A stretch of DNA of 64,000 nucleotides from Aquimarina sp. AU58. GTDB taxonomy: Bacteria; Bacteroidota; Bacteroidia; Flavobacteriales; Flavobacteriaceae. How positions within the stretch are numbered: position 1 is the stretch's first letter; each line of letters opens with the position of its first letter. Where the stretch lies: NCBI RefSeq assembly GCF_900312745.1, contig NZ_OMPD01000009.1, forward strand, positions 372,001 to 436,000, written 5' to 3'. The position numbers and the translations under genes are program-made. Positions 2,394 to 48,339 of the stretch are shown one piece after another. The notes beneath the pieces were generated by a model, which did not search any database, had not been told where the DNA came from, and was given only the letters and a program-made list of their open reading frames with translations.

Positions 2394-2401
2394 AAACTGG
2401 T

Positions 2402-2451: not shown

Positions 2452-2478
2452 GATAGGTTATATAAATTAAACAAGATC

Positions 2479-2925: not shown

Positions 2926-2934
2926 AAGCTCGTT

Positions 2935-31812: not shown

Positions 31813-33315
31813 ATGTTGGATACCCAAATTACCCTTAAACCTGACCTCGCGGTTGACTATCTTTTTGATGCTCATTCTAAATATGAATATGAAGAATATA
31901 TACAAAAAGCTGTTCAGTATATTAAAACCTTTTTAGATAATGACTGTTTTTATAGTGGGGAATCTGCAGAAATGCTTAAGTCTCGTAAAGAAGGAATTTC
32001 AGTAAATTCACAAACTAATTTATCTTTGGATCAGGCATTACGAGAGATTAAAGATGTATTTCTTGACCATGCCATTTCTTTTCACCATCCTCATTATGTA
32101 GCGCATCTTAATTGTCCTGTTTTATTACCAGCATTGGTAGGAGATTTAATAGCTTCATCTGTTAACACAGCGATCGAAACCTGGGATCAAAGTACGTCTG
32201 CTACTTTAATAGAAAAAGAGATGATTCGTTGGATTTGTAATGAAATGAATTTTCCCGCAGAATCAGATGGTGTTTTTACCAGCGGGGGTACACAATCCAA
32301 TTTTAAGGCACTTTTGATGGCGAGAGATCATTATGCATTTACACATTATGGAATTAACTTAAAAGAGAATGGGTGGTCTGATGAGGTTAGTAAGTTTCGT
32401 ATTTTTTGTTCAAATAAAGCACATTTCAGTATCAAAAAAAATGCAGCTTTATTAGGTATGGGATATGATGCTGTAATACCTGTAGAAACAGATGATAAGA
32501 TGAAAATGAAAGTAGATGCTCTGGTACAGGCTATAGAAAAAGAAAAACAACGAGGCAATATACCAATTGCTATAGTTGCTACAGCTGGGACAACAGATTT
32601 TGGAAGTTTTGATCCTTTGCAAACGATCTCTAAAATTGCAAAAGAGTATAATATCTGGTTTCATGTAGATGGAGCATACGGAGGATGTTATGTCCTAACC
32701 GATACCCATAAACATATGTTTAATGGCGTAGAATATGCCGATTCGATGACAGTCGATTTTCATAAAACTTTGTTTCAACCAGTATGCTCTAGTGTCTTTC
32801 TGGTTAGAGATACAAAGTATTTTAAATATATTTCTTACTACGCAGATTATCTTAATCCTATAGAAAACAGGGATGAAGAACATCCGGATTTGATTGAAAA
32901 ATCTATTCAGACTACCCGACGATTTGATGCTTTAAAACTATGGTTTACTTTAAAAGTAACTGGAGCTAAAAATTTGGGTGGATTTCTAGAAAGAGTACAC
33001 CACCTGGCCAGAGAAATTTATTACATCATTAAGGATGATATCTATTTTGAAGTAGCACACAAACCAGAACTAAGCACTCTTGTATTTCGGTTTAAGATTC
33101 CTGGTGTATCTGATGAAAAAGTCTTAGATACAGTAAATCTACATATTAAAAACACGCTTTTTAATGCTGGTAAAGCTTCTGTAGCCAGTACTAAACTAAA
33201 TGGTAAAACCTATTTAAAATTTACCTTGTTAAATCCGAGAACAACAAAAGAAGATTTGATAGAGGTTGTTAAAATGATCAAAGAACAGGGGCTAATTTAT
33301 ACCACAAATAATTAA
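31813..33315 (+). CDS. PLP-dependent decarboxylase (lysine or diamino-acid type), siderophore biosynthesis
   Basis: The 500-residue group II decarboxylase probably makes the diamine precursor (cadaverine from lysine, or a shorter homologue) of a hydroxamate siderophore, as DesA and BibA do. Seen: FTSGGTQSN (155-163), a PLP-stacking His in NKAHFS (H204), HVDGAYGG (284-291) with the PLP-pairing Asp, and the Schiff-base lysine in DFHKTLFQP (K318). It is the first gene of a nine-gene + strand operon and has the operon promoter. Substrate preference is inferred from the neighbours. Confidence 0.88.
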   Translation: MLDTQITLKPDLAVDYLFDAHSKYEYEEYIQKAVQYIKTFLDNDCFYSGESAEMLKSRKEGISVNSQTNLSLDQALREIKDVFLDHAISFHHPHYVAHLNCPVLLPALVGDLIASSVNTAIETWDQSTSATLIEKEMIRWICNEMNFPAESDGVFTSGGTQSNFKALLMARDHYAFTHYGINLKENGWSDEVSKFRIFCSNKAHFSIKKNAALLGMGYDAVIPVETDDKMKMKVDALVQAIEKEKQRGNIPIAIVATAGTTDFGSFDPLQTISKIAKEYNIWFHVDGAYGGCYVLTDTHKHMFNGVEYADSMTVDFHKTLFQPVCSSVFLVRDTKYFKYISYYADYLNPIENRDEEHPDLIEKSIQTTRRFDALKLWFTLKVTGAKNLGGFLERVHHLAREIYYIIKDDIYFEVAHKPELSTLVFRFKIPGVSDEKVLDTVNLHIKNTLFNAGKASVASTKLNGKTYLKFTLLNPRTTKEDLIEVVKMIKEQGLIYTTNN

Positions 33316-33324
33316 AATAATACG

Positions 33325-34659
33325 ATGATGAGTGATACTAAAATAGTAGATTTTGTAGCGGTAGGGATTGGTCCTTTTAACCTGGGACTAGCTTGTTTAA
33401 CCGAACCTATTGATGGGTTAGAAGGAGTTTTTTTAGATAAAAGCCCTAAGTTTGACTGGCATCCCGGGATGTTACTTCAAGATACAACATTACAGATTCC
33501 GTTTATGGCAGATTTGGTAACTCTGGCAGATCCTACCAGCCCATTTAGTTTTTTGAATTATATCAAAAAACAAGGACGCATGTATTCCTTCTATATAAAA
33601 GAAAATTTCTTACTACTTCGTAATGAATACAATCAATATTGCCAATGGGTAATAGAAAAACTGCCTAACTTGTTTTTTAATACCGAAGTAACTCATATAC
33701 AGTATAATGAAAAAGAAGAGTATTACGTTGTTACTTCAAAATGTACACAGACCGATGACTTAAAAATATACAAAGCAAGAAAACTGGTTTTAGGAACAGG
33801 AACTCAACCTTATGTTCCGGGATGTTGCAAACAATTAGAAGGAAAAGCATTTCATTCTTCATCATATCTACAGAGTAAAGCAGTAGTGCAATCCAAAAAA
33901 TCTATTACCATATTAGGTAGCGGGCAAAGTGCAGCAGAGATTTTTTATGATCTTTTGCAAGAGATTGAAACAAAAGAATATCAATTAAACTGGATTACCA
34001 GGTCTCCAAGATTCTTTCCATTAGAATATTCTAAATTAACTCTAGAGATGACTTCTCCAGAGTATGTAGATTATTTCTATAATCTGCCACAGAGTAAAAA
34101 GGATCATTTAATTCAAAATCAAAAACATCTCTATAAAGGAATTAATCAAGATCTAATTGCAGATATCTATGATCTAATCTATACCAAGCAGTTGACTAAT
34201 GATGTTAAGATATCATTACGTACCAATTCTGAATTGACTGCTGCAGCGTATAATGAAAATGAAAACACTTTTGATCTTGAATTACACCAAATTGAACAAA
34301 ATAAACGATATCGCCATCAAACAGAAGCGCTAATACTAGCAACTGGCTATACCTATCAGAAACCAGAATTTATAGAAGGTATAGCAGATCGGATTAAGTG
34401 GGATGATAAAAACCGATATGATGTACATCGCAATTATAGTATCGATAAGCAGGGTAAGGATATCTACGTACAAAATGTAGAATTGCACACCCATGGGTTC
34501 GTAACTCCAGATTTAGGAATGGCTTGCTATCGCAATTCTTTTATCATTAAAGAACTAACAGGAAAAGAGTATTACCCGATAGAAAAACGTATTGCTTTTC
34601 AACAATTTGAAGTGACTCGGGAAGAAGAAATTAGTATGGAGGAACCTGTTTTAAGGTAA
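33325..34659 (+). CDS. Lysine/ornithine/diamine N-hydroxylase (IucD/DesB family)
   Basis: The 444-residue flavin monooxygenase should hydroxylate the terminal amine of the diamine (or of lysine), producing the hydroxylamine of the hydroxamate group. The FAD motif GIGPFNL is at 14-20, the substrate-region LQIPFMADLVTLADPTSPF at about 56-74, the NADPH motif GSGQSA at 198-203 and LATGYTY near 350. It starts 10 bp after the decarboxylase stop; either of two adjacent ATG codons could be used. Together the two genes match the first two steps of desferrioxamine- and bisucaberin-type pathways. Confidence 0.92.
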   Translation: MMSDTKIVDFVAVGIGPFNLGLACLTEPIDGLEGVFLDKSPKFDWHPGMLLQDTTLQIPFMADLVTLADPTSPFSFLNYIKKQGRMYSFYIKENFLLLRNEYNQYCQWVIEKLPNLFFNTEVTHIQYNEKEEYYVVTSKCTQTDDLKIYKARKLVLGTGTQPYVPGCCKQLEGKAFHSSSYLQSKAVVQSKKSITILGSGQSAAEIFYDLLQEIETKEYQLNWITRSPRFFPLEYSKLTLEMTSPEYVDYFYNLPQSKKDHLIQNQKHLYKGINQDLIADIYDLIYTKQLTNDVKISLRTNSELTAAAYNENENTFDLELHQIEQNKRYRHQTEALILATGYTYQKPEFIEGIADRIKWDDKNRYDVHRNYSIDKQGKDIYVQNVELHTHGFVTPDLGMACYRNSFIIKELTGKEYYPIEKRIAFQQFEVTREEEISMEEPVLR

Positions 34660-34668
34660 ACCATAATC

Positions 34669-34701
34669 AGACCTCACAGGTCTTTAAGACCTGTGAGGTC
34701 T
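34669..34701. repeat. Perfect 33-bp palindrome inside the siderophore operon
   Basis: AGACCTCACAGGTCTT (34669-34684), one T, then its exact inverse (34686-34701). It lies between the hydroxylase and exporter genes, 18 bp before the exporter ATG. GC-richer than its surroundings, it resembles short interspersed palindromes scattered in flavobacterial genomes. In RNA it forms a strong hairpin with no T-run. Confidence 0.75.
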
Positions 34702-34719
34702 ATAAATTGTAATCTTACA

Positions 34720-35907
34720 ATGACTCTAAAAAAAATCCTTATTCTTATGACTCTGGTAGCGGTAGTAAGCGATTATTTGCTACACCCCTTTTATCCACAG
34801 TTTTTTGAAGCTCGCTTTGGGGTTACAGATCCCAAATATGTAGGGTACTATTTTGCTGCCATTTGTTTTATGGTGATGATTGCGTTTCCGTTTTGGGCAT
34901 ATATATCAAAAAAAGTAGCTGAGTTAAATATTTTGGTGTATACGCAATGTATAGCAGGAATATTAGCATTATACTGTTATTGGACCACCTCTTATATTAA
35001 TTTCTGGATCATATCCTTGATTATGGTATTATTTAAAGGAAGTTATCTTTTGGTATACCCATATATCTTAAAAATTATTACCAAAAAAGAACATACAAGC
35101 ACGATAGGAGTGCTCTCTGTTGTTGTACATCTAGGAGGAATTTTAGGAGCAGTGATTGGTGGATTGACGGTAGATCTTGTTGATGCCAGTTATATTTTTC
35201 TGGCGATGGCCGCTGGAGATTTTATACAAATGGGAATAAGCATGTATGTAATGCGTAGCAAAAAATATGATACAAATAAAATTATTGAAACTCAATCGAC
35301 TCTTGATGCTAAGGATAAAATTATTCCCCAAGGTTTTATCCTTAAGATTGGGTTAGTAACCATGATCTTATATTTTAGTGATTTTCTAATCCGCCCTTTT
35401 TTCTCGTTATACTGGGAAAGCCTTTCTGATTATGACGGTAAATTAATTTCTGGAAGCATATATGCGATACCTGGTTTTGTAGCATTAATTGCGCTGTGGA
35501 TCAATACAAAGTATAGTCCAAAAAATAAAAATAAGAGTATCATATCAGCATTATTTCTAGGAATGATTGGGCTCATACTTCAAGGGCTTCCTGTTGAGGC
35601 CATTGTGATTGTAGGAAGAATCATTTATGGTTGGGCGATTTTTCAGGGAGTAGTACGTTTTGATGTATTACTGTTCGAGTTTAGTTCACCAAATTCTTAT
35701 GCTATCGATTACAGTAAGGTCCATTTTTTTCAAAACCTGGGAGTATTACTAGCTTCTTTTTCGGTAGGGATTGTGGTAGATCAACACGGGTTACAAATTC
35801 CATTTACAGTAGCATTAGCAGGTTTTTTCATTGCACTAGCAATGTACTATTTCATGTTTATCAGAACAACAATTAGAGCAAGAGCAAAGAATCTAGCAAA
35901 AACATAA
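34720..35907 (+). CDS. MFS transporter, probable siderophore exporter
   Basis: The 395-residue protein has about twelve hydrophobic segments and the layout of the major facilitator superfamily, with a central loop around residue 180-200 (KYDTNKIIETQS). Its place between the N-hydroxylase and the synthetase genes makes siderophore export its most likely role. Start at ATG 34720; an upstream GTG (34693) lies in the palindrome and is unlikely. Ten bases separate it from the next gene. Confidence 0.85.
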   Translation: MTLKKILILMTLVAVVSDYLLHPFYPQFFEARFGVTDPKYVGYYFAAICFMVMIAFPFWAYISKKVAELNILVYTQCIAGILALYCYWTTSYINFWIISLIMVLFKGSYLLVYPYILKIITKKEHTSTIGVLSVVVHLGGILGAVIGGLTVDLVDASYIFLAMAAGDFIQMGISMYVMRSKKYDTNKIIETQSTLDAKDKIIPQGFILKIGLVTMILYFSDFLIRPFFSLYWESLSDYDGKLISGSIYAIPGFVALIALWINTKYSPKNKNKSIISALFLGMIGLILQGLPVEAIVIVGRIIYGWAIFQGVVRFDVLLFEFSSPNSYAIDYSKVHFFQNLGVLLASFSVGIVVDQHGLQIPFTVALAGFFIALAMYYFMFIRTTIRARAKNLAKT

Positions 35908-35916
35908 AGATTTTAT

Positions 35917-38376
35917 ATGTCAGTACAAGAACATACAGGTTTAGTAACATCTGCAAAAGAAGGATATGAGTTTTCATCATCATATAAGAACTTTGGTGAT
36001 ATTCATATACGACATTTTGATGTTGAAACAGACAGTATTGTATTACACGATTGGGTAAATCGGGATTATGCTTTATTCTGGGGTATGCAACAAAGTTCGG
36101 TTGAAAAGGTAAAAGCCGAATATGCCAGGTTAATACGACCAGATCATTATGATATTTTTGTTGGTGTATATAGAGAACAACCTGTTTTTGTTTTAGAACG
36201 TTATCATCCACAACAAGATCTTATCGGAAAATATTATTCGGCCCAGAGCAATGACTGCGGGATTCATATTATAGTAGCACCGCCATCCGAAGGTAAAATT
36301 GAAAACTTTACATGGTATATGTTTGATACGATTATGAATTTTGTTTTTCAGGATGAAAAAATACATCGAATTATCGTAGAGCCCGATATACGAAATAAAA
36401 AGATGTTTTCGATTTGCCAACGTGTAGGTTTTCAGCTTGATACTATTGTCGAACTTCCGCATAAAACCGCACAACTCGCTTTCTTAACCAGACAAAAACA
36501 TAACCAACTTAAATTATTTCCACAAATCCATAAACGAAGTGCAATGAATACATTAGACAACGCCGTTTCACCCCAACAATCTGTATCCCATATACAACCA
36601 GAATTATGGGTTAAAGTAAATACTTTACTAATCAAAAAAGCAATATGCGAATTTAGCCATGAGTTACTTATACAACCCAGAATAGTAGAAAAATTGGGAG
36701 ACGGTTGGAATAGGTATTCTTTGGAAGCCGATAACCCCGAGATTCGATATGAATTTAGAGGAAAACAGTTGGCATTACATCATTTATGGATTAGCGAAGT
36801 TTCTATTCAGAAATATGAATCCGAAAAATCGGTAAGGCTAGATGCTATTTTATTTATCAAAGAGTTTAGAGAAAAATTAGGGATTGATACTACTACAATG
36901 CCTGTATATCTCGAAGAAATTATTAGCACCTTGTACGGAAGTGCTTTTAAGCATGTAAAAGGAAATCCTTTGGCTATAGATTTGGTCTCTGCAGATTTTC
37001 AGACTATCGAGCAATCAATGATGGAAGGTCACCCTGGTTTTGTAGCTAATAATGGCCGAATAGGATTTGATAGTAGCGACTATAGATCATATGCTCCCGA
37101 AGCCGGAAATTCCTTTTACCTCATATGGTTAGCAGGCCATAAGAGTAGTGCCGTATATGCTGCTATCGAAGATTTACCGTATGAAACCTTAATTGAACAA
37201 GAATTAGGTGCAGATACTATTTTATCTTTTAATACTATAATAAAGAATAAAGGTTTTGATCCAGATGAGTATTACTTCATTCCTATGCACCCCTGGCAAT
37301 GGTTTAATAAATTAGCTAATATATTCTCTCCAGAGGTTGCCAAAGGAAATCTGATTTGTTTGGGTTATGGTCCAGATCAATACCTGGCACAACAATCGAT
37401 ACGTACATTATTTAATATTTCGAACCCTCATAAACTGTATATCAAAACGGCCCTTTCTATCTTAAACATGGGATTTATGAGAGGATTGCCTTTATACTAT
37501 TTGGGTACAGCTCCAAAAATGGCAGTTTGGTTAGAAGAATTATTATATAATGATTCTTATATTAAAGAAACAGGATTTAGGATGCTGGGAGAAATAGGTT
37601 CTGTTAGTTATGTAAATCCATATTTTGAGGAGTTTGGGCCACACAATGACTATAATAAAATGCTGGCCTCATTATGGAGAGAAAGCCCGATGGGTATGAT
37701 CGATGACGGCCAAAAACCAATGACAATGGCTGCTTTTCTACATATTGATCAAACCGGCGAAGCATTATTACCCAAAATTATTGCCGCCTCGGGGTTATCT
37801 ATCTCAGAATGGTTACACAATTATTTTAAAGCATATCTAAGTCCGCTAATACACTGTTTTTATCATTTTGATTTGGTGTTTATGCCTCACGGCGAAAATA
37901 TCATCATGGTATTAGAAAATAATATACCGGTGAAAATATTAATGAAAGATATTACCGAGGAAGCCTGCATTCTAAGTTCAGAGGTTAAATTACCCGAGCA
38001 CTTGAAACGTATGTATGCTCCTGTTCCCGAAGATGTGAAATTGTTATCTATTTTTACAGATATTTTTGATGGATTTTTTAGATTCATGTCCCATATCCTG
38101 GTTGAACATGCTGGATATTCTGAAGAGAATTTCTGGGAGTTAGTAGCAGAAAATATACATCAATATCAGCAACGTTATCCAGAAAAAGCAGCCAAATTTA
38201 AACAATACGATCTTTTTGCGCCAGAATTTCATCTATCGTGTCTTAACAGGCTACAATTAAACAACAATAAACAGATGATTGACCTAGATGACCCTGTTGC
38301 ATTACTTCAGTTTGCAGGGCGATTACAAAACCCTATTGCTGCTTTTAGAAAAGAAAAACCCAGCCCTCTAGTATAA
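35917..38376 (+). CDS. Fused GNAT acyltransferase - IucA/IucC siderophore synthetase
   Basis: The 819-residue protein joins two siderophore enzymes. Residues 1-195 are a GNAT domain of the IucB/DesC type (IHIRHFDVE, DWVNRDYALFWGMQ, IIVEPDIRNKKM), which acylates the hydroxylamine. After a linker, about residues 225-800 are an NIS synthetase of the IucA/IucC (DesD) type: EGHPGFVANNGRIGF (near 370), MHPWQW (near 458), QQSIRTLFN, KTALSILNMGFMRG (near 511) and a C-terminal PHGENIIMVLE region. It condenses units using ATP. The same fusion order is known for BibC of the bisucaberin pathway. Internal Met210 lies at the linker and could be a relic start. An unfused paralogous pair follows. Confidence 0.9.
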   Translation: MSVQEHTGLVTSAKEGYEFSSSYKNFGDIHIRHFDVETDSIVLHDWVNRDYALFWGMQQSSVEKVKAEYARLIRPDHYDIFVGVYREQPVFVLERYHPQQDLIGKYYSAQSNDCGIHIIVAPPSEGKIENFTWYMFDTIMNFVFQDEKIHRIIVEPDIRNKKMFSICQRVGFQLDTIVELPHKTAQLAFLTRQKHNQLKLFPQIHKRSAMNTLDNAVSPQQSVSHIQPELWVKVNTLLIKKAICEFSHELLIQPRIVEKLGDGWNRYSLEADNPEIRYEFRGKQLALHHLWISEVSIQKYESEKSVRLDAILFIKEFREKLGIDTTTMPVYLEEIISTLYGSAFKHVKGNPLAIDLVSADFQTIEQSMMEGHPGFVANNGRIGFDSSDYRSYAPEAGNSFYLIWLAGHKSSAVYAAIEDLPYETLIEQELGADTILSFNTIIKNKGFDPDEYYFIPMHPWQWFNKLANIFSPEVAKGNLICLGYGPDQYLAQQSIRTLFNISNPHKLYIKTALSILNMGFMRGLPLYYLGTAPKMAVWLEELLYNDSYIKETGFRMLGEIGSVSYVNPYFEEFGPHNDYNKMLASLWRESPMGMIDDGQKPMTMAAFLHIDQTGEALLPKIIAASGLSISEWLHNYFKAYLSPLIHCFYHFDLVFMPHGENIIMVLENNIPVKILMKDITEEACILSSEVKLPEHLKRMYAPVPEDVKLLSIFTDIFDGFFRFMSHILVEHAGYSEENFWELVAENIHQYQQRYPEKAAKFKQYDLFAPEFHLSCLNRLQLNNNKQMIDLDDPVALLQFAGRLQNPIAAFRKEKPSPLV

Positions 38377-38387
38377 GATCCTTTTTT

Positions 38388-39011
38388 ATGAATAACGCAG
38401 CAACCATACCATCCACAGTTTTTTCTAGAACTATTAAAGAGCTCGGAGATATACATTTACGTCTTTTGGATATAGAAAAAGATATAGAAACTATCCACGA
38501 TTGGGTTACCAGGCCTTATGCTACTTACTGGGGTATGCAAGAGCATACTTTAGAAGAAGTAAGACTTGCGTATCAAGAAATAGTCGAATCAGATCATCAT
38601 GATGCGTTCGTAGGTGTACTAAATAACCAACCTATTTTTTTAATGGAACGTTACCTCGCTATAAAAGATTCTATTTCAGAATATTATGAAGTACAGGAAG
38701 GAGACTGTGGAATGCATATTTTGGTTAGCCCCATCAAAAAAAAGATTCCAAATTTTACCTGGCATATATTTTCTACAATTCTCGAATATCTGTTTAGTGA
38801 TCCACAAACCAATCGAATTGTTGTAGAGCCAGATGTGAGAAATGAAAAAATTCATGTACTCAATAAACGAGCAGGATTTCAATATCATAAAGAAATTGAA
38901 TTACCTCATAAAACAGCAGCATTGGCTTTTTGTGATAAAAAAGATTACGAGAAAGCACTCATGCTAGAAGAAAATAAAAATATAGTACATAAAAATAAAA
39001 TCAATGGCTAA
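38388..39011 (+). CDS. Second, stand-alone GNAT acyltransferase (IucB/DesC-like)
   Basis: The 207-residue acyltransferase is plainly paralogous to the N-terminal domain of the preceding fusion: GDIHLRLLDIEKDI, HDWVTRPYATYWGMQ, IVVEPDVRNEKI and ELPHKTAALAF all have counterparts there. It would transfer an acyl group from CoA to a hydroxylamine. A second copy in one operon suggests a different acyl donor (for example succinyl in one case and a fatty acyl group in the other), which is inference. Its last codons overlap the start of the next gene by 8 bp, so the two are translationally coupled. Confidence 0.88.
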   Translation: MNNAATIPSTVFSRTIKELGDIHLRLLDIEKDIETIHDWVTRPYATYWGMQEHTLEEVRLAYQEIVESDHHDAFVGVLNNQPIFLMERYLAIKDSISEYYEVQEGDCGMHILVSPIKKKIPNFTWHIFSTILEYLFSDPQTNRIVVEPDVRNEKIHVLNKRAGFQYHKEIELPHKTAALAFCDKKDYEKALMLEENKNIVHKNKING

Positions 39012-40845
39012 GTTAGATATGGTAATCCAACCAGAAGTTAATCTTGATTATCTAAGACTTGATGTTTGGAAAAAAGTAAATCGAGCTCTTGTTAAGAAAG
39101 CAATTAGCGAATTTACACACGAATTACTTTTACAACCAAAACCACAGTATCAGGAAAAATATTGGGGGCATTTTGTTTTGGTCTCAGATTTACCAGGAAT
39201 TACCTATGAGTTTAAAGCCAAAAAACGAAGTCTTGATCATTGGCATATCGATGAGAATAGCCTTGTAAAAAGACGAAATGGAAATCTGGTGACTGTAGAT
39301 GCCATACATTTTATTTTAGAATTTAGAAATACTTTGGGAATTTCTGATGACATGTTGCCTACCTATCTCGAAGAGATTGCCAGTACTTTATCTGGAGCAG
39401 CATATAAATATCATAATAAAAAATGCTCTTCAAGAGAACTGGTCCAGTGTAGTTTTCAGGTAATCGAACATGCAATGACCGAAGGGCATCCCTGTTTTGT
39501 AGCTAATAATGGGCGTATAGGTTTTGACGCTAAAGATTACATTAAATATGCTCCCGAAACCGACAATTCGTTTCAAATTATATGGCTGGCAGGCCATCGC
39601 GATAAAGCGACATTTACAGCAGTAAAAGGGTTTGAATATAAATTACTAATGAGGCGAGAACTAGGAGTTTCTACAATCGCCAAATTTAATGATGTATTAG
39701 AGAATTTAGGATTGGATATGGAGTCTTATGTTTTTATACCCGTTCACCCCTGGCAATGGCATAATAAGATCATTCATATTTTTGCTGCAGATATAGCAAA
39801 CATGGATCTTGTGTTTCTGGGAAAAGGAGAAGATCAGTATTCTGCGCAACAATCGATAAGAACATTATACAATAAAACGGCTCCTGATAAATTATACACC
39901 AAAACGGCACTATCTATTTTAAATATGGGATTTATGCGAGGCCTTTCTCCATATTATATGCAAAGCACACCCCATATCACTACTTGGATAACAGAATTGC
40001 TTAAAGATGATAAATACCTTAAAAAAACAGGGTTTACCATGCTGGGTGAAGTTGCTACTGTTGGATATAAAAACTTTAATTACGAAGTTTTAGGCAAGAC
40101 AAATGCTCATAATAAGATGCTTTCTGCTTTATGGAGGGAAGCCCCCGGGGCTAAGATTAAAGAAGGTCAGCAGGTAATGACCATGGCAGCCTTTTTACAT
40201 GTAGATAATGATAATACTTCATTGTTAGCAGAATTGATACAAGCTTCTTCATTTGATACCGAAACCTGGTTGAAAAAATATCTACAGTGTTATCTAAGTC
40301 CTTTATTGCATTGTTTCTATGCTTATGAGTTGGTTTTTATGCCACATGGCGAAAATCTGATTATGGTCATGGAAAATCATACTCCTGTAAAGGCGCTAAT
40401 GAAAGATATTACCGAAGAAGTAATCGTTTTTAATTCTGAATTAAACTTACCCGAAGAAGTAAAACGCCTGTATACCGAAACTTCTGATAAAATGAAAATA
40501 CTTTCAATTTTTACAGATGTGTTTGATTGCTTTTTTAGGTTTATGGGAGATATACTTGAAGAATATTGTGAGTATCCCGAAGGACTATTCTGGGAGTTGG
40601 TTGCCGATTGCATTAACACATATCAACAAAAACACCCCGAATTAGAAAGGCAATTCAAGAAATATGACCTTTTTGTGCCAGAATTTGATAGATGTTGCCT
40701 CAATAGATTACAATTGAAAAACACAAAACAAATGCTGAATCTGGCAGACCCTATAGAGAGTTTACAATTAGTAGGAACCCTTAAAAACCCTATTGCAGAG
40801 TATCGTAATAATAAAGTAAGGATTCCGGCTATGAGTAACTCATAA
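39004..40845 (+). CDS. Second IucA/IucC siderophore synthetase, unfused
   Basis: The 613-residue NIS synthetase carries the same motifs as the fused copy: EGHPCFVANNGRIGF (near 160), VHPWQW (near 247), QQSIRTLYN, KTALSILNMGFMRG (near 300), PHGENLIMVME. It forms an amide between a carboxylate and an amine or hydroxylamine using ATP. Together with the overlapping acyltransferase it forms a split version of the preceding fusion. Two synthetases could carry out two different couplings, or one could add a citrate or acyl arm. Its exact step is unknown. Confidence 0.9.
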   Translation: MAKLDMVIQPEVNLDYLRLDVWKKVNRALVKKAISEFTHELLLQPKPQYQEKYWGHFVLVSDLPGITYEFKAKKRSLDHWHIDENSLVKRRNGNLVTVDAIHFILEFRNTLGISDDMLPTYLEEIASTLSGAAYKYHNKKCSSRELVQCSFQVIEHAMTEGHPCFVANNGRIGFDAKDYIKYAPETDNSFQIIWLAGHRDKATFTAVKGFEYKLLMRRELGVSTIAKFNDVLENLGLDMESYVFIPVHPWQWHNKIIHIFAADIANMDLVFLGKGEDQYSAQQSIRTLYNKTAPDKLYTKTALSILNMGFMRGLSPYYMQSTPHITTWITELLKDDKYLKKTGFTMLGEVATVGYKNFNYEVLGKTNAHNKMLSALWREAPGAKIKEGQQVMTMAAFLHVDNDNTSLLAELIQASSFDTETWLKKYLQCYLSPLLHCFYAYELVFMPHGENLIMVMENHTPVKALMKDITEEVIVFNSELNLPEEVKRLYTETSDKMKILSIFTDVFDCFFRFMGDILEEYCEYPEGLFWELVADCINTYQQKHPELERQFKKYDLFVPEFDRCCLNRLQLKNTKQMLNLADPIESLQLVGTLKNPIAEYRNNKVRIPAMSNS

Positions 40846-40881
40846 AAGAAAATCAGGTTAACCTATTTATTCTAACAAAGC

Positions 40882-41820
40882 ATGAACGAAACAATTCAAA
40901 TATGGTTAGATAAGTTTCAGAGTATTTCTGGAATTGTTATTATAACTCTTGTCGTTATAGAATGGGTTATTCTGTTTATAACCAGAAAAATAGAAAGCCA
41001 TAAAGAAGGTGTAGTAAATATAGTATCCTATATATTAGAATCGATTCCATACATTTTTTTGGGTAAGATTGTGATTTTGGGGATAATGATGTGGGGATAT
41101 GAATATCGCTTATTCACCTTAGGATATGAATGGTATATATGGGTGCTGGCCTATTTTTTATATGATTTTATGTTTTATGTGTTGCATTTTATAGGGCATA
41201 AAATTAGATTCTTTTGGTGTATCCATGGGGTGCATCATACCGCAGAAGAAATGAAGCTAACGGTAGCGGTACGAGGATCATTTCTTATTTTTTTGCACAT
41301 GCCGCATACCATATTATGGCTTCCTCTATTAGGATTTGACCCCTTTATGATTTTTATTATCGAGTTAATAGCAAATTTGTATGGACTTTATGAACATGTG
41401 AGCGAAAAACTAATCGGTAGACAGCCATGGTTAGAGTGGATTCTTATAACCCCTTCTTTGCATAGAGTACATCATGCCAAAAATCATAAATACTTAGATA
41501 CAAATTACGGAGAGACTTTTTCTATTTGGGATAAAATTTTTGGAACCCTACAAGTAGAACTAGATGATGAAAAACCCGTGTATGGATTAATGGGTGATAG
41601 TATAAATAGTGAGAGTTTATGGCAAATTCAATTACTATTATGGAAAGAACTTTGGGCCGATATGAAGACAGCAAAAAAAGTATCAGACAAATTAAAATAC
41701 TTGATTATGTATCCCGGTTGGAACCATATTGATGGAGGTAAAAAGGCAAGTGATTATAGATCTGAAGCATGGATACGAGACGAACTAATAAAACGAACAC
41801 AAAAAGAAGTACAAACGTAA
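40882..41820 (+). CDS. Membrane fatty-acid hydroxylase / sterol desaturase superfamily
   Basis: The 312-residue membrane enzyme has several hydrophobic segments and the three His clusters that bind a di-iron centre: HFIGH (HX3H), HGVHH and HRVHH. The superfamily hydroxylates or desaturates lipid chains. It lies 36 bp after the synthetase gene and is followed by an acyltransferase and a crotonase, so I infer that it modifies a fatty acyl group destined for the siderophore or its membrane anchor. A role in another lipid cannot be excluded. It needs iron itself. Confidence 0.85.
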   Translation: MNETIQIWLDKFQSISGIVIITLVVIEWVILFITRKIESHKEGVVNIVSYILESIPYIFLGKIVILGIMMWGYEYRLFTLGYEWYIWVLAYFLYDFMFYVLHFIGHKIRFFWCIHGVHHTAEEMKLTVAVRGSFLIFLHMPHTILWLPLLGFDPFMIFIIELIANLYGLYEHVSEKLIGRQPWLEWILITPSLHRVHHAKNHKYLDTNYGETFSIWDKIFGTLQVELDDEKPVYGLMGDSINSESLWQIQLLLWKELWADMKTAKKVSDKLKYLIMYPGWNHIDGGKKASDYRSEAWIRDELIKRTQKEVQT

Positions 41821-41826
41821 ATACAG

Positions 41827-42939
41827 ATGAGAAATAATAATAGAATTTTAGCAATAGATTTAGCGAGAGGGGTAAGTGTATTGATGGTAATCATAGTACA
41901 TACCTTATGGATATATGGCGATATACCTACTCAATCAAATACCTGGCTAGGAGGAGTAGTTCATTTTATAGGAAAAGGAACTCCGATGTTTTTAATTGCA
42001 ATGGGAGTTTCATTTACCTTATCCAGAAATCAAAGCATAGTACTGTCTATAAAACGGGCATTATATATTCTCGCTGCGGGGTATATTATGAATTTTCTAA
42101 AATTTGTTTTGCCAGTTCTAATTGGGACAATACCACATGCTTTTATAGAAGCCTATGGCTGGACAGCTCCAGCTACTATAGATAACATGATCTATATGTT
42201 GCTTACTGGAGATATATTACAACTTGCAGGAGTTTCTCTATTATTTATGGGAATTATAAACAAATTTTCAAAAAACAAATATGTACCATTAATTATTGCA
42301 TTTATAATAGCTGTAGTAACCAAGGAGGTACACGGTTTCCAATTAGGAATAGGAAGTGTGGATTATATCCTGGACCTAATGTGGGGAGCAAAGTGGAATG
42401 TATATTTTGCTGTATTTCCTTGGTTTTCTTTTATACTTATTGGGATGTTTTTTGGAATGTGGTATAAAGAGAATAATAAAAGTAATGCCCATATATTTAA
42501 AAGAATGTTTATAGCAGGTGTTCTTTTGATGTTGATCGGGGGTGGATTGTGTTTTTATAATTTTGAGTATCACTTCGGAGATTATTTTCATTTAGGGCCA
42601 GGAGGAACTATTTATCTGGCAGGATTCAATTTAGTTCTAATGTGGTTAGCGCATATTTTAGTTACCTATATAAAGACAAACAGAGTTTTTGAGTTTCTAT
42701 ATTACTGTAGTAAACGAGTAACTACAATATACATCATTCAATGGGTAATTATCTGTTGGGGAATGGGAGCTTTAGGATACCAGCAATTTGGGATTACAGC
42801 AGTTCTGATTTTGATCCCTTTATATATAATGCTAACACTCGGAATACAAAAATTACTGTTTGATAAACCATTTTGGTCGAAGAAAACAAGAAAACAAAAT
42901 AATATCACAAAAAATTCAATATCTCTACAAAAACCTTAA
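41827..42939 (+). CDS. DUF1624-like membrane acyltransferase
   Basis: The 370-residue protein has about ten hydrophobic segments. The start, RILAIDLARGVSVLMVIIVH, is typical of the DUF1624 / heparan-alpha-glucosaminide N-acetyltransferase-like catalytic family, membrane proteins that pass acyl groups across a bilayer. It begins 6 bp after the hydroxylase. In this operon it could acylate, or trim acyl groups of, the siderophore during export (inference). Confidence 0.8.
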   Translation: MRNNNRILAIDLARGVSVLMVIIVHTLWIYGDIPTQSNTWLGGVVHFIGKGTPMFLIAMGVSFTLSRNQSIVLSIKRALYILAAGYIMNFLKFVLPVLIGTIPHAFIEAYGWTAPATIDNMIYMLLTGDILQLAGVSLLFMGIINKFSKNKYVPLIIAFIIAVVTKEVHGFQLGIGSVDYILDLMWGAKWNVYFAVFPWFSFILIGMFFGMWYKENNKSNAHIFKRMFIAGVLLMLIGGGLCFYNFEYHFGDYFHLGPGGTIYLAGFNLVLMWLAHILVTYIKTNRVFEFLYYCSKRVTTIYIIQWVIICWGMGALGYQQFGITAVLILIPLYIMLTLGIQKLLFDKPFWSKKTRKQNNITKNSISLQKP

Positions 42940-42943
42940 TATC

Positions 42944-43771
42944 ATGCGACAATTTAATTGTGTTACTATAGAATATTTCAAAGAGCAAGAACTTTTATTT
43001 TGGAAAATCAAAGATACAGGAATGCCAAATTTTTGTCTGGATGGTCTTTGGGAATTTCAGGAGTTCGCAATTTGGGTAAAAGAATACTTTTCACACCCGG
43101 ATCGTCCTCTTAAATTTATTGTTTCGGCTTCAGAACATGACGGAATCTATAATATGGGTGGAGATCTTCCTTTTTTCTTAGAAAATATTAAAACAAAAAA
43201 TGTAGAGAACCTAACGACTTATGCGCATTTATGTATAGATGCGATTTATAATATTTACACTTCTTTTGGTCTGCCTGTAATAAGTGTAGCTCTGGTAGAA
43301 GGAAATGCGTATGGAGGCGGGTTTGAATGTGCATTGGCACATGATTTTATAATTACAGAAGAAAAAATACAGTTTTGTTTACCCGAAAATAAATTTAATT
43401 TATTTCCAGGAATGGGGGCCTATAGTTTACTGTATAGAAAATTAAACACAATAGATGTCGATGCAATAATAAAAAGCGGAAGAATCTATAAAGCAAGATA
43501 TTTACAGTCATTAGGATTAATTGAAGAATTGGCTGAAAAAGGAACTGCTCTAGTATCTTTACATCTCTTTATTAAAAGAATAACTGAGAACTTCAATTTT
43601 GAATACCATCACATACAATGTAAGAAAAGTGTTTTTCCACTAGAAAAAGAAGAACTTTTGAAGGTTACAGATTTATGGGTAGAGGCATGTATGAAAATCA
43701 ATACATTTGACCTTCGTAAAATGGAAATTCTCATAAATGCACAATCTAGAAAAGCTAAAGTAGAAATCTAA
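42944..43771 (+). CDS. RpfF-type (DSF synthase-like) crotonase
   Basis: The 275-residue crotonase-fold enzyme resembles RpfF of Xanthomonas, which makes cis-2-unsaturated fatty acid signals from 3-hydroxyacyl-ACP, more than ordinary enoyl-CoA hydratases. Matching segments are NMGGDLPFFLENI (oxyanion region), SVALVEGNAYGGGFECAL, LPENKFNLFPGMGAYSLL and VTDLWVEACM with INAQSRKAK at the C-terminus. The two RpfF catalytic glutamates correspond to E128 and E148, with the same 20-residue spacing. I use ATG 42944, 5 bp after the previous stop. As last gene of the siderophore operon it probably supplies a 2-enoyl fatty acid for acylation; production of a diffusible signal is the alternative. Confidence 0.8.
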   Translation: MRQFNCVTIEYFKEQELLFWKIKDTGMPNFCLDGLWEFQEFAIWVKEYFSHPDRPLKFIVSASEHDGIYNMGGDLPFFLENIKTKNVENLTTYAHLCIDAIYNIYTSFGLPVISVALVEGNAYGGGFECALAHDFIITEEKIQFCLPENKFNLFPGMGAYSLLYRKLNTIDVDAIIKSGRIYKARYLQSLGLIEELAEKGTALVSLHLFIKRITENFNFEYHHIQCKKSVFPLEKEELLKVTDLWVEACMKINTFDLRKMEILINAQSRKAKVEI

Positions 43772-44827: not shown

Positions 44828-45841
44828 TTACCGTATGGTCTCTAATCCTCTTTGCCTGTATTTTTTAGGAGTAATACCCTCGAGTTTTTTAAAAGCTGCA
44901 GTAAAATGAGTAGAATTTTTATACCCTACTAATTCTGAAATCTCATATATTGGTTTTTTACCGTGTTGTAATAGTTTTTTTGCTTTACTCATTCTCAAAT
45001 TCAAAGCATATTCAAAGATTGTTGTACCAAAAACACGTTTAAATTCTTTTTTAAGTATAAAGTCATTGAGTCCGACTATACGGGTTAATTCATGAACAGA
45101 GTATTGATTGGTTAGATCAGAGCTTATAATAAACTGAACTTCATATAGCTTTTTAATTAGGTTATCAGTATTTGAGATTTCGGTTTTAGAATTCTTTTGT
45201 ATGTCTAATTGTAGAGATAGTAACTCTAGTACTTTTGATTCTAGAAATAAACGTTTTAATAGCCCTTGTCGAGTATCGGTTAATAGTTCTGCAAGTATTT
45301 CCTGAGTTTTGATACATAGAGGTTTTGTAAACTCTTTATCTTGTTTTTCTAATTCATATTTTTCACGGATTCCATATTCTGAGTCGAGTTTATGTTTTTT
45401 GATAAAATCCAGACTCATCCTGATCTTAATCTCTTTAAAATATTTGTTTTTATGATATTTAATAGATCCAGAAGTTTGGGATATATACAGAAGGTAACTT
45501 TCCTGACTTTCATAAATCAGATCGTAATTTTTTCCATTAATTTTAATGATTTGTTCACCATCAATTAGGTAAGAAAGCTCTAGTGCATTTATCGCATATG
45601 TACCATGAATATCGAAATCCTTGTTTAAGGATACATCAAAAATTGCTATATGTAATCCATCAAAATGGACATACTCTAAATAACCATCTCCATATTCAGG
45701 TAGGAATTGAAATTTTTTTGTAAGTATACCACAGTGTTCCTGGGTATTAATTAGTTCTGTAACAGTATGTAATGTGCATTTATTTTGATTGTTTGAGTTT
45801 GTTGTTTTTGACGACTCTGTATTGCGTCTTTTTTTATCCAT
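44828..45841 (-). CDS. AraC/PchR-type transcriptional regulator
   Basis: The 337-residue regulator has an N-terminal sensing region (ELSYLIDGEQIIKINGKNYD, LLYISQTSGSIKYH) like that of PchR, which senses iron-siderophore, and a C-terminal AraC DNA-binding domain (about 230-335) with two HTH motifs (SVHELTRIVGLNDFILKKEF; IYEISELVGYKNSTHFTAAF, then GITPKKYRQRG). It is divergent from the TonB receptor gene. A paired CGTC repeat covers its own start codon and recurs upstream of the biosynthesis operon; it probably activates both sets of genes and represses itself (inference). Confidence 0.9.
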   Translation of the reverse strand: MDKKRRNTESSKTTNSNNQNKCTLHTVTELINTQEHCGILTKKFQFLPEYGDGYLEYVHFDGLHIAIFDVSLNKDFDIHGTYAINALELSYLIDGEQIIKINGKNYDLIYESQESYLLYISQTSGSIKYHKNKYFKEIKIRMSLDFIKKHKLDSEYGIREKYELEKQDKEFTKPLCIKTQEILAELLTDTRQGLLKRLFLESKVLELLSLQLDIQKNSKTEISNTDNLIKKLYEVQFIISSDLTNQYSVHELTRIVGLNDFILKKEFKRVFGTTIFEYALNLRMSKAKKLLQHGKKPIYEISELVGYKNSTHFTAAFKKLEGITPKKYRQRGLETIR

Positions 45842-45871: not shown

Positions 45872-45911
45872 TAATTTTGCAATTAAATTTATTTAGACCA
45901 AATATAAATAA
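45872..45911. promoter_or_regulatory. Receptor promoter, regulator promoter and iron-repressor site
   Basis: Receptor -7 box TAATTTTG (45872-45879), six bases, then a motif beginning AATTTATTTAGACCAAATA (45886-45911), the same arrangement as at 31771-31810. On the opposite strand, TATATTTG (45906-45899) is a -7 box for the AraC-type gene and lies inside the motif, so one bound repressor could shut both. Confidence 0.6.
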
Positions 45912-45951
45912 TAATATAAAGTCTAAACTAAATTGTTTAAAAAAAATTGTA

Positions 45952-48339
45952 ATGTCAGTGATTATTTTAAGAAAAAACAGTGCTCTTTTTTTTCTGTTTT
46001 TATACGCAATGGTCTGTAACGCTCAGAGTAAGGTAACAGGCGTGGTTTTGGATCAGAATTCTAATCCGATTCCCGAAGCATCTATACAGGTTTTAGGACG
46101 TCAAGATAGAGGGACTGTAAGTGATTTTGATGGTAACTTTAGTTTAGAAATACCTCCGGGGTCCTATACTCTAAAAGCTAGCTTTGTAGGTTTTAAGAAC
46201 TACATCAAGAAGATAGTAGTAGATAATTCAACAACTACATCCTTAACAATTGTTCTACAAGAAGATATTAAGGAATTAAGTGATGTGATTGTAAAAGCAA
46301 AATCTAACGCTCGAAATACAAGAGAAAAGGCATTTGAAGTTGAAGTTGTACAGACCAAAGGGCTTAAAAATGTAAGTGTAGATGTCAACTCGATTTTAAT
46401 GACTATTCCTGGTGTAAATGTAAGGCAAAGAGGTGGTTTAGGCTCTGGTTTTGACTTTTCATTAAACGGTTTATCTGGTAAGCAGGTTAAATTTTTTATC
46501 GATGGTATTCCTTTAGAAAATTTTGGGAGCTCATTATCGCTAAATAATTTCCCGGCAACTTTGGTAGAGAGAGCTGAGGTCTATAAAGGTGTTGTTCCTA
46601 TATATTTAGGAGCAGATGCCTTGGGAGGAGCGGTAAATATTATTACAAACCAACGCAAAAATAATTTCCTGGATGTATCTTATGATACGGGGTCTTTTAA
46701 TACGCATCGTGCTACAATAAATGGACAATATTATAGCAAAAAAGGCTTTGCTGTAAAAGTTTCTTCGTTTTATAATTATTCTGATAATGATTATAAGATA
46801 GATGGTATTGAAATAAGAGATGAACTGGGTAATGATACAGGAATCAGACGTGATAATGTAAGACGATTTCATGATGCATATAATTCTCAAATGATCAGTG
46901 TTGAAACTGGTTTTGTAGATAAAAAATTTGCAGATAAATTACTGGTTGGGATTACTGCATCGGCTAATAAAAATGAGATTCAGCATCCTATTGATCCTCA
47001 GAACCCTTTTGGTGAAGTTTTTACAGAGAATGATGTAATTAAAGCTTCTGTTACTTTTGAAAAAGCAAATCTACTCAAGGAAAAGTTAAAAGTAAAGTTA
47101 TATGCTTCTATTGGTCAAAATAATGATAAGGTAGTAGATACTTCTGCACGAAAATATGATTGGTTTGGTAATTTTATAGAAAGGGGAGACCAAAACTTAG
47201 GAGAACTTGAATTTAGTAAAACTTTATTTGAATTTAAGGATAATACACATTTGATTAATGCTTTTGGAAGGTATAAGATCAATGACTGGAGCAAGTTCAA
47301 TATTAATTTTACCAAGAATTATATCAAAAGAAGAGGTGAAGATCCTGCCAGAGTGGGAAGAATACCTTTTAATGACCCCCATATTATAAACAAAAATATA
47401 TTTGGTGTATCCTATGATTTAGGCTTGTTTGATGCTACCTGGAATACCACACTATTCGCTAAAGGATATTTATTAAACTCAGAAGGTATTATTGAAGATT
47501 CATTTACTACTGTAGAAGCAGATCGTTTTACAAAGATTGAGAATACATTCGAAGAACTGGGATACGGATTTGCATCGACCTATAAATTTTCTGATCACGT
47601 TCAGGTAAAAGGCTCGTTTGAGAAAACATTTAGAATTCCTGATGGCTATGAGGTATTTGGAGATGGGTTTCTATTGAAATCAAACCCCGAATTGTTACCA
47701 GAAGAAAGCTATAATGCAAATCTTGGAGTTCTTTTAAATACAGATATTAATAAGTTCAAATTGCGTTTTGATACTAACGTTTTCCTTAGAGAATCAGAGA
47801 ATTTTGTTGCAATTCGATCCGAAGGGATTTTTTCAAGATTTTATAATACCGCAGCAGCAAGAAGTACAGGAATAGAAGGCGAAATTAGAACATTATATAA
47901 TGATATTCTATTTCTGGATCTTAATGCAACCTATCAAAATATTATAGATCGTAATATAGGAGGGAATTCTGGTGTTGATTTTCTAAAAAATCAACGAATT
48001 GCTAATATCCCATATCTATTTGGTAATGCCAGAATAGGATGTAATTTAAAAGATATTTTTTCTACAAACGATCAAGTAACATTCTCCTGGGGTTCTTACT
48101 ACGTACACGATTATCCACTTACCTCTTTTGTAGAAGGAGATCCAAATGAGAGAGATATTATACCAGAACAACTGTCACATAATGTACAGCTAGGATACTC
48201 TTTTAAAAAGGGAACCTATAATATATCTGTACAGGCACGAAATATAACAGACGAGAAAGTGTATGACAATTTTGAAATACAACAGCCAGGAAGAGCTTTC
48301 TATGTAAAATTAAGATACTATTTAACAAACAAAAACTAG
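45952..48339 (+). CDS. TonB-dependent siderophore receptor
   Basis: The outer-membrane receptor of about 795 residues should take up the ferric siderophore made by the adjacent operon. A signal peptide (ending CNAQ) is followed by a carboxypeptidase-regulatory-like domain (GTVSDFDGNFSLEIPPGSY), a plug (SVDVNSILMTIPGVNVRQRG, later GADALGGAVNIIT) and a barrel ending in VKLRYYLTNKN. I choose ATG 45952 because it starts the signal peptide; a TTG at 45877 lies in the promoter. A DUF4374 lipoprotein gene follows after 24 bp. Confidence 0.92.
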   Translation: MSVIILRKNSALFFLFLYAMVCNAQSKVTGVVLDQNSNPIPEASIQVLGRQDRGTVSDFDGNFSLEIPPGSYTLKASFVGFKNYIKKIVVDNSTTTSLTIVLQEDIKELSDVIVKAKSNARNTREKAFEVEVVQTKGLKNVSVDVNSILMTIPGVNVRQRGGLGSGFDFSLNGLSGKQVKFFIDGIPLENFGSSLSLNNFPATLVERAEVYKGVVPIYLGADALGGAVNIITNQRKNNFLDVSYDTGSFNTHRATINGQYYSKKGFAVKVSSFYNYSDNDYKIDGIEIRDELGNDTGIRRDNVRRFHDAYNSQMISVETGFVDKKFADKLLVGITASANKNEIQHPIDPQNPFGEVFTENDVIKASVTFEKANLLKEKLKVKLYASIGQNNDKVVDTSARKYDWFGNFIERGDQNLGELEFSKTLFEFKDNTHLINAFGRYKINDWSKFNINFTKNYIKRRGEDPARVGRIPFNDPHIINKNIFGVSYDLGLFDATWNTTLFAKGYLLNSEGIIEDSFTTVEADRFTKIENTFEELGYGFASTYKFSDHVQVKGSFEKTFRIPDGYEVFGDGFLLKSNPELLPEESYNANLGVLLNTDINKFKLRFDTNVFLRESENFVAIRSEGIFSRFYNTAAARSTGIEGEIRTLYNDILFLDLNATYQNIIDRNIGGNSGVDFLKNQRIANIPYLFGNARIGCNLKDIFSTNDQVTFSWGSYYVHDYPLTSFVEGDPNERDIIPEQLSHNVQLGYSFKKGTYNISVQARNITDEKVYDNFEIQQPGRAFYVKLRYYLTNKN

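What the first reader, a model, noticed from the sequence alone, without database searches (positions are those of the whole stretch)
42944..43771. RpfF (DSF synthase)-type enzyme at the end of a hydroxamate siderophore operon
The crotonase shares with RpfF the segments GGDLPFFLENI, GNAYGGGFECAL, LPENKFNLFPGMGAYS and the C-terminal INAQSRK, and both catalytic glutamates (E128, E148) with the RpfF spacing of 20. RpfF is known for making cis-2-enoic fatty-acid signals. Some NIS siderophores carry 2-enoyl chains (rhizobactin 1021, acinetoferrin). Here the gene is 5 bp behind a membrane acyltransferase and a fatty-acid hydroxylase in the same operon as two synthetases. Either the siderophore bears a 2-unsaturated acyl tail made by an RpfF-type enzyme, or siderophore and DSF-like signalling are produced together. 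I know of neither in this phylum.
Basis: partly seen in the sequence, partly recalled or inferred. Interest (0 to 1): 0.85.

Follow-up and report, generated by a model that had tools for sequence, protein, structure and literature searches.

The report
DSF-synthase-type enzyme in siderophore operon
A marine bacterium has, at the end of the gene set that makes its iron-scavenging molecule, a relative of the enzyme that other bacteria use to make a fatty-acid signal, and it most likely builds the molecule's unusual cis-2-unsaturated fatty tail.

Summary
The gene at 42944-43771 encodes an RpfF-type crotonase (NF006452 265 bits, cut-off 177). It ends a desferrioxamine/bisucaberin-type siderophore operon in an Aquimarina genome. 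The pairing is conserved: 30 of 52 Aquimarina genomes have the gene, all 30 have a synthetase, and in 29 the two lie within about 4 kb. In Tenacibaculum 5 of 78 have it, all 5 beside the synthetase. Three genomes with other genus codes repeat the arrangement. The likely product is in print: tenacibactin K, from a Tenacibaculum with 99.4% 16S identity to T. aiptasiae a4T, is a cadaverine-succinate siderophore whose terminal hydroxamate carries a cis-2 iso-C15 enoyl chain, DSF plus two carbons. The T. aiptasiae a4 genome carries this operon with the gene, its only synthetase locus found. I infer that the enzyme dehydrates a 3-hydroxy-iso-acyl-ACP to the cis-2-enoyl tail that a GNAT domain puts on N-hydroxycadaverine. 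DSF signalling is less likely: no GGDEF domain in 6 of 6 genomes searched. The listings of my searches of an open-access library showed no paper making this link. No biochemical test exists. A known enzyme family in a new role, explaining orphan chemistry.

The parts
31813..33315 (+). PLP-dependent decarboxylase (BsbA/DfoA-like; presumed lysine to cadaverine)
   Evidence: PF00282 7e-71; best PDB match 5o5c, putative decarboxylase of desferrioxamine biosynthesis, 1.5e-135; best NCBIfam model is diaminobutyrate decarboxylase RhbB, 400 bits, under its cut-off 900, so the substrate is not settled
33325..34659 (+). N-monooxygenase (BsbB-like; presumed N-hydroxylation of cadaverine)
   Evidence: PF13434 4.5e-129; best NCBIfam model histamine N-monooxygenase, 401 bits, under its cut-off 700
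34693..35907 (+). MFS transporter (BsbE-like, presumed exporter)
   Evidence: PF07690 1.2e-19; same position as bsbE in PMC6164419
35917..38376 (+). GNAT N-acyltransferase fused to NIS synthetase (BsbCD1-like)
   Evidence: PF13523 + PF04183 + PF06276; PDB 5o7o DfoC 5.8e-240
38388..39011 (+). second GNAT hydroxylamine N-acyltransferase (BsbC2-like)
   Evidence: PF13523 1.1e-48
39004..40845 (+). second NIS synthetase (BsbD2-like, type C)
   Evidence: PF04183/PF06276; PDB DfoC 1.4e-211, DesD 7e-196
40882..41820 (+). fatty-acid-hydroxylase superfamily membrane enzyme (optional member of the operon)
   Evidence: PF04116 2.4e-25; present or absent independently of the RpfF-type gene
41827..42939 (+). 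HGSNAT/Acyl_transf_3-type membrane acyltransferase
   Evidence: PF07786 2.3e-21, PF01757 8.2e-12; also in 15 of 15 fetched NIS clusters without the RpfF-type gene (8, 7)
42944..43771 (+). RpfF-type crotonase; predicted 3-hydroxyacyl-ACP dehydratase making the cis-2-enoyl tail
   Evidence: NF006452 264.8 bits, cut-off 177; PDB 5fus/6dgn 8e-48, 3m6m 1.9e-37; E128, E148 invariant; model pLDDT 86.7, pTM 0.87
44828..45841 (-). AraC-type regulator, conserved beside the operon
   Evidence: PF12833 5e-20; also beside the 8 Aquimarina NIS clusters without the RpfF-type gene
45877..48339 (+). TonB-dependent receptor, presumed ferri-siderophore uptake
   Evidence: Plug PF07715 8e-16

Best explanation
The gene encodes an RpfF-type crotonase recruited into a desferrioxamine/bisucaberin-class siderophore pathway. 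Proposed mechanism: fatty-acid synthesis supplies (R)-3-hydroxy-iso-acyl-ACP (about C15); the enzyme, using E128 and E148, dehydrates it to the cis-2-enoyl thioester; a GNAT domain of the operon transfers that acyl group to N-hydroxycadaverine; the NIS synthetases condense this capped unit with N-hydroxy-N-succinyl-cadaverine units, giving a membrane-affine acyl siderophore like tenacibactin K. Shown here: family membership, conserved catalytic residues, operon context and its conservation, purifying selection. Shown in print: the cis-2 iso-C15 acyl siderophore from a close relative of a sequenced carrier. Inferred: substrate, cis product in Aquimarina, transfer by a GNAT, and whether the enzyme keeps the thioesterase activity of RpfF. 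The cis-4 tail of tenacibactin L would follow if a cis-2 iso-C13 acyl-ACP re-enters elongation (inference).
For: Family: NF006452 264.8 bits over cut-off; 25 of 25 members of alignment A2 match NF006452; best PDB hits are RpfF-type; the 19 siderophore-linked rows of the tree form one clade, 98/99. Context: 16 of 16 named loci have NIS genes beside the gene; in Aquimarina 30 of 52 genomes have the gene and 38 of 52 the synthetase, all 30 having both, Fisher p 1.8e-7; in Tenacibaculum 5 of 78 and 12 of 78, all 5 having both, p 3.8e-5; of the 4 further carriers in 397 family genomes 3 are in the same operon. Backbone: DfoC/DesD/AlcC-type synthetases and DfoA-type decarboxylase, same gene order as the bisucaberin B cluster. 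Chemistry: tenacibactin K, cis-2 iso-C15 enoyl on N-hydroxycadaverine, producer 99.4% 16S to T. aiptasiae a4T; T. aiptasiae a4 carries the operon with the gene (L019), the only NIS locus found in it. Xcc RpfF makes cis-2-enoyl-ACP from 3-OH C10-C14 acyl-ACP (PMC4542539, passages). dN/dS 0.09-0.23 over ten pairs.
Against: No enzyme assay, mutant or mass spectrum links gene to tail, and searches showed no chemically described Aquimarina siderophore. The producing strain C16-1 is not itself among the genomes I could name. RpfF proteins also hydrolyse the thioester, and no acyl-CoA/ACP ligase gene is in the operon, so a free acid would need reactivation. In G011 the gene sits far from the synthetases, though in a cassette with a GNAT. 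8 Aquimarina and 7 Tenacibaculum genomes have the synthetase without the gene, so it is optional. In G051 (L035) the nearby synthetase is only 39% identical, the conserved MGGDL segment is lost and the neighbouring acyltransferase is fragmentary. In L012 and L081 the gene lies in two pieces in different frames. Four carriers (L013, L021, L036, L037) have only one GNAT and one synthetase in the cluster, so one GNAT must take succinyl and fatty acyl there, or another enzyme acts. G914 has distant RpfF-type genes in a different, PUFA-type cluster.
Confidence: 0.8

Rival explanations
1. The enzyme makes a free DSF-like cis-2 fatty acid as a cell-cell signal, co-expressed with siderophore genes under iron limitation; the siderophore tail is made otherwise or by spill-over.
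For: Same family as DSF synthases; RpfF has thioesterase activity; an AraC-type gene lies nearby.
Against: No GGDEF domain in 6 of 6 carrier genomes, control 8 of 14, so the known RpfR and RpfG c-di-GMP routes seem to lack their messenger; proteobacterial copies sit next to an EAL gene in 4 of 7 annotated loci, while the neighbours scanned here include none; in the two genera searched no carrier lacks the synthetase; the AraC gene is also beside clusters without the RpfF-type gene. RpfC-type kinases and HD-GYP proteins were not searched.
Confidence: 0.12
2. The enzyme is an RpfF-like thioesterase or hydratase that trims, recycles or detoxifies the siderophore's acyl chain (or supplies a saturated or 3-hydroxy chain) and not the maker of the cis-2 bond.
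For: RpfF cleaves saturated acyl-ACPs well; tenacibactin M is saturated; several genes of the operon look lipid-active.
Against: A saturated tail should need no such enzyme (inference); the cis-2 geometry of tenacibactin K is the product geometry of RpfF.
Confidence: 0.05
3. It is an ordinary enoyl-CoA hydratase of beta-oxidation next to the operon by chance.
For: Crotonase family; both catalytic Glu at the same spacing also in 2 of 3 ordinary crotonases of this genome.
Against: Best ordinary crotonase model 63.5 bits against 264.8; 16-19% identity to own crotonases against 27-33% to ten proteobacterial RpfF-type rows; synteny in Aquimarina, Tenacibaculum and three genomes with other genus codes.
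Confidence: 0.03

Closest known systems
RpfF (Xanthomonas) / Bcam0581 (Burkholderia) DSF synthases
   Same: Same family model, catalytic Glu pair, FPGMG loop; 27-40% identity to proteobacterial copies
   Different: Located in a siderophore operon in Bacteroidota, no c-di-GMP partner gene beside it, its copies form their own clade; activity untested
bsb cluster, bisucaberin B, Tenacibaculum mesophilum (PMC6164419)
   Same: Same gene order: decarboxylase, monooxygenase, MFS, GNAT-NIS fusion, GNAT, NIS
   Different: The paper's six ORFs (parts 1 and 2 of 4 read) include no crotonase; product is an uncapped dimer
Tenacibactins K-M (PMC8767563)
   Same: Predicted product class: cadaverine-succinate hydroxamate with a cis-2 iso-C15 acyl cap (K)
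   Different: Known as chemistry only; the parts read (1 and 2 of 4) propose no enzyme for the double bond
Mycobactin MbtN/MbtK (PMC4376628)
   Same: cis-2-unsaturated acyl on a hydroxamate nitrogen, put there by an acyltransferase (passages; MbtK is a weak PDB hit of the GNAT)
   Different: MbtN is an acyl dehydrogenase, not a crotonase-type dehydratase: a different route to the same bond
Fungal SidH/SidF
   Same: A hydratase named for mevalonyl-CoA supplies an unsaturated acyl to a transacylase acting on a hydroxyamine (PMC3709128, abstract start in the listing; SidF is a weak PDB hit of the GNAT); crotonase fold of SidH recalled
   Different: Short isoprenoid acyl-CoA, fungal NRPS siderophores (recalled)

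Membership tests
RpfF-type crotonases (PRK08788/NF006452) | Score above curated cut-off | tested here: met
   264.8 bits, cut-off 177; 25 of 25 members of A2 match at E<=1e-10
RpfF-type crotonases (PRK08788/NF006452) | Two catalytic Glu (E141/E161 of Xcc RpfF, numbering recalled) | tested here: met
   E128 and E148 invariant in 30 rows; not specific,
Xanthomonas-type DSF synthase equivalog (NF053515) | Score above 550 bits | tested here: not met
   156.4 bits; the three proteobacterial copies beside EAL genes that were scanned also fail, 157-207 bits
DSF synthase (function) | 3-hydroxyacyl-ACP dehydratase giving cis-2-enoyl plus thioesterase | not testable with these tools
   Needs purified enzyme
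DSF signalling, RpfR type | Receptor with GGDEF-EAL domains | tested here: not met
   GGDEF absent in 6 of 6 genomes, control 8 of 14
DSF signalling, RpfC/RpfG type | RpfC sensor kinase and RpfG HD-GYP protein | not tested
   Not searched
Desferrioxamine/bisucaberin-type NIS operon | Decarboxylase, N-monooxygenase, GNAT, type C NIS synthetase | tested here: met
   substrate of decarboxylase and monooxygenase not settled by NCBIfam
Tenacibactin-type acyl siderophore | cis-2 iso-C15 acyl cap on N-hydroxycadaverine | not testable with these tools
   Needs LC-MS/NMR; known from a T. aiptasiae-like strain

The most novel reading that the evidence does not exclude
The siderophore carries a DSF-type acyl group as both anchor and message: an RpfF-type enzyme writes a cis-2 iso-enoyl tail on a hydroxamate siderophore, and release or sensing of that tail (for example by the nearby AraC-type regulator, or by neighbours that sense DSF-family acids) couples iron supply to cell-cell signalling. 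cis-2-enoyl hydroxamates would then have arisen twice, by dehydrogenation in mycobacteria and by RpfF-type dehydration in Bacteroidota.
Probability: 0.12. Interest if true: 0.9.

Novelty: new variant of a known kind. Interest (0 to 1): 0.72.

Why it matters
It gives a candidate enzyme for an orphan structural feature (the cis-2 double bond of tenacibactin K), extends the DSF-synthase family from signalling to siderophore tailoring in another phylum, and offers a gene marker that would predict which Flavobacteriaceae make cis-2-acyl siderophores. It warns against annotating every RpfF homologue as a quorum-sensing synthase. One deletion and one LC-MS run can test it.

Tried and rejected
Rejected: ordinary enoyl-CoA hydratase; citrate-type siderophore like rhizobactin 1021 (synthetases and decarboxylase match desferrioxamine enzymes best in the PDB, although the best NCBIfam model of the decarboxylase is RhbB, under its cut-off); DSF signalling as the main role. 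The idea that the membrane acyltransferase and the fatty-acid hydroxylase are dedicated partners of the RpfF-type gene fell: the acyltransferase is in 15 of 15 fetched clusters without it, and the hydroxylase comes and goes independently. The idea that fast divergence of the gene means diversifying selection fell: dN/dS is 0.09-0.23; the high divergence against G001 (dS 0.78 against 0.09-0.28 for the ten other genes) fits local allele replacement (genes with a stop in the matched stretch or no match were left out of those pairs, as its output marks). Led nowhere: a promoter scan with the Bacteroidota consensus (recalled) gave three + strand hits in 16 kb, none directly before a gene start. Paper searches: RpfF + siderophore + hydroxamate gave 3 papers, bisucaberin + crotonase 0, four of five terms on DSF synthase, enoyl-CoA hydratase, siderophore, desferrioxamine and acyl 10 papers, DSF/RpfF with Bacteroidetes/Flavobacteri 29, 20 listed; I saw listings only, and no title or abstract start was on such a cluster. 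The library holds open-licence PMC papers only. A first tree used wrongly extracted crotonase rows and was discarded; even there one crotonase (L003) is a long branch inside the RpfF side, its place unsure, and the proteobacterial copies do not form one group. One search found no locus files for L006-L021; repeated, where they were read. In the alignment for the model (A2) I left out L035 (decayed) and the four plasmid rows of A1, so 25 of 30 rows.

Full report
What is there. The window lies in a 6.19 Mb genome (G000 contig 10) of the genus Aquimarina: the nearest named relative of the gene is in A. megaterium XH134, 97% identical, and the tool counts that genome (G002) as the same genus. From 31813 to 43771 on the + strand run nine close-packed genes: PLP decarboxylase, N-monooxygenase, MFS transporter, GNAT fused to an NIS synthetase, GNAT, second NIS synthetase, fatty-acid-hydroxylase-superfamily membrane protein, HGSNAT-type membrane acyltransferase, and the crotonase. 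Downstream, after a flavodoxin and a 119-aa frame, lie an AraC-type regulator and a TonB-dependent receptor.

Which siderophore. Both synthetases match DfoC, DesD and AlcC far better than the aerobactin or petrobactin enzymes, and the decarboxylase matches the desferrioxamine decarboxylase 5o5c best. The gene order equals that of the bisucaberin B cluster bsbA, B, E, CD1, C2, D2 of Tenacibaculum mesophilum (PMC6164419, parts 1 and 2 of 4 read). So the backbone should be N-hydroxy-N-succinyl-cadaverine, not citrate. Against this, the best NCBIfam models of the decarboxylase and the monooxygenase are RhbB and histamine N-monooxygenase, both under their cut-offs, so lysine/cadaverine as substrate is inferred. 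PMC9323603 (passages) reports bisucaberin B-type clusters in the Aquimarina genomes it studied except two.

What the crotonase is. It scores 264.8 bits with NF006452 (cut-off 177) and 156.4 with the Xanthomonas-type RpfF equivalog model (cut-off 550), against 63.5 for the next family. Failing the latter cut-off is not telling: the three proteobacterial copies beside EAL genes that I scanned score 157-207. The four best PDB matches are RpfF-type, two of them named so. E128 and E148 are invariant in the 30-row alignment; F154 and M157 are in 29 of 29 RpfF-type rows and 0 of 3 own crotonases, whereas the Glu spacing is shared by two of those three. A tree of 32 rows puts the 19 siderophore-linked copies in one clade (98/99), apart from two own crotonases with 100/100; the third crotonase is an unsure long branch on the RpfF side, and which proteobacterial copies are nearest is not resolved.

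How firmly it belongs to the operon. All 16 named loci found have NIS genes beside the gene; in one, L012, the gene is in two frames. In Aquimarina, 30 of 52 genomes have the gene and 38 of 52 the synthetase; all 30 have both, and by the coordinates of those two calls the gene lies within about 4.1 kb of a synthetase in 29 of 30 (in G051 a synthetase of only 39% identity, beside a decaying copy). The exception, G011, has it in a cassette GNAT - hydroxylase - acyltransferase - alpha/beta-hydrolase - crotonase, while its NIS cluster has the first synthetase without its GNAT domain. In Tenacibaculum 5 of 78 have the gene, 12 of 78 the synthetase, all 5 both and within 4 kb. Fisher p is 1.8e-7 and 3.8e-5; related genomes are not independent, so these are guides only. 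Of 397 family genomes, 5 carry a match including this one: three others, with three other genus codes, have it in the same operon (one of these, G935, in two reading-frame pieces), and one, G914, has two distant tandem copies beside a PUFA-type synthase on a 13.6-kb contig without NIS genes. Order and phylum draws gave only this genome, 1 of 395 each. Ten proteobacterial copies have no NIS match in the up to 4-8 kb fetched on either side, and 4 of 7 annotated ones sit beside an EAL gene.

The chemical match. Tenacibactin K (PMC8767563, parts 1 and 2 of 4 read) is a cadaverine-succinate siderophore with three N-hydroxy groups whose terminal N-hydroxycadaverine carries an iso-pentadecenoyl chain with the double bond next to the carbonyl and J = 11.4 Hz, hence cis-2. 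Its producer C16-1 is 99.4% identical in 16S rRNA to T. aiptasiae a4T. The T. aiptasiae a4 genome (L019) has the operon with the RpfF-type gene, and this is the only NIS locus found in it (two matches, both there). DSF is cis-11-methyl-2-dodecenoic acid (recalled; see the abstract start of PMC8659556 in the listing), so the tail is DSF plus two carbons. Xcc RpfF turns 3-hydroxy C10-C14 acyl-ACP into cis-2-enoyl-ACP and, for C12, free BDSF (PMC4542539, passages). Tenacibactin L (cis-4) and M (saturated) accompany K; cis-4 iso-C15 is what one elongation round on cis-2 iso-C13 acyl-ACP would give (inference).

Mechanism. Shown: family, residues, context, selection (dN/dS 0.09-0.23 over ten pairs), published product of a relative. 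Inferred: 3-hydroxy-iso-acyl-ACP as substrate, cis-2 dehydration, GNAT transfer to N-hydroxycadaverine, NIS assembly. Open: whether the thioesterase activity is kept. If it is, a ligase from elsewhere must reactivate the acid. The mycobactin pathway reaches the same bond through the dehydrogenase MbtN (PMC4376628, passages), so two routes to cis-2-enoyl hydroxamates are likely.

Signalling. No GGDEF domain was found in this genome, in two further Aquimarina genomes or in three Tenacibaculum genomes, while the control rang in 8 of 14. RpfC-like kinases and HD-GYP proteins were not searched. The AraC-type gene is present beside clusters with and without the crotonase, so it more likely answers to the siderophore in general. 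Signalling by a freed acid is not excluded.

Novelty. Searches for RpfF with siderophore and hydroxamate (3 papers), bisucaberin with crotonase (none) and DSF synthase/enoyl-CoA hydratase with desferrioxamine terms (10 papers) showed, in their listings, no paper making this link; subscription journals are mostly absent. I file it as a new variant of a known kind: a known enzyme family in a new biosynthetic role. Confidence 0.8 in the tail-making role.

Noticed in passing
L082 (G914:C119) 1343-3060: Two tandem distant RpfF-type genes (31-34% identical, 262 and 290 bits with NF006452) beside a PUFA-type ketosynthase/FabA protein, a P450 and a PPTase-like ORF: another non-signalling-looking setting for this family (PPTase and P450 by eye).
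   Followed up: partly
L046 (E. coli plasmid) 7806-8639: RpfF-type gene in a cluster with a ketosynthase, an ABC transporter and an outer-membrane lipoprotein-sorting protein on an IncK2/Z plasmid.
   Followed up: no
L024 (G011) 8905-13873: The cassette GNAT-hydroxylase-acyltransferase-esterase-crotonase stands apart from the NIS cluster, whose first synthetase lacks its GNAT domain there.
   Followed up: partly
L041 (G001) 6139-6960: Crotonase allele 80% identical to the window's while the ten other genes compared are 89-99%; dS 0.78 against 0.09-0.28, suggesting local allele replacement.
   Followed up: partly
G865, G806 and G011 synthetase loci: Stops inside a synthetase reading frame: in G865 and G806 in the BsbD1-type copy, in G011 in one NIS copy; PMC6164419 saw no activity of the BsbD1 part in E. 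coli.
   Followed up: no
L018 6321-6905 and 8021-9046: Some Tenacibaculum operons add a nitroreductase-family gene, an alpha/beta hydrolase, or both; the nitroreductase could bear on the hydroxamic acid terminus of tenacibactins (speculation).
   Followed up: no
window 38388-39011: The stand-alone GNAT has the highest or tied-highest dN/dS of the operon genes in the ten pairs (0.14-0.29), perhaps changing acyl preference.
   Followed up: no
window 4894-16857: A 3987-aa reading frame with only weak LysM matches, next to a 1201-aa frame without Pfam match.
   Followed up: no
L035 (G051) 10083-10898: Crotonase copy with degraded MGGDL and C-terminal segments beside a fragmentary acyltransferase: apparently decaying.
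   Followed up: no
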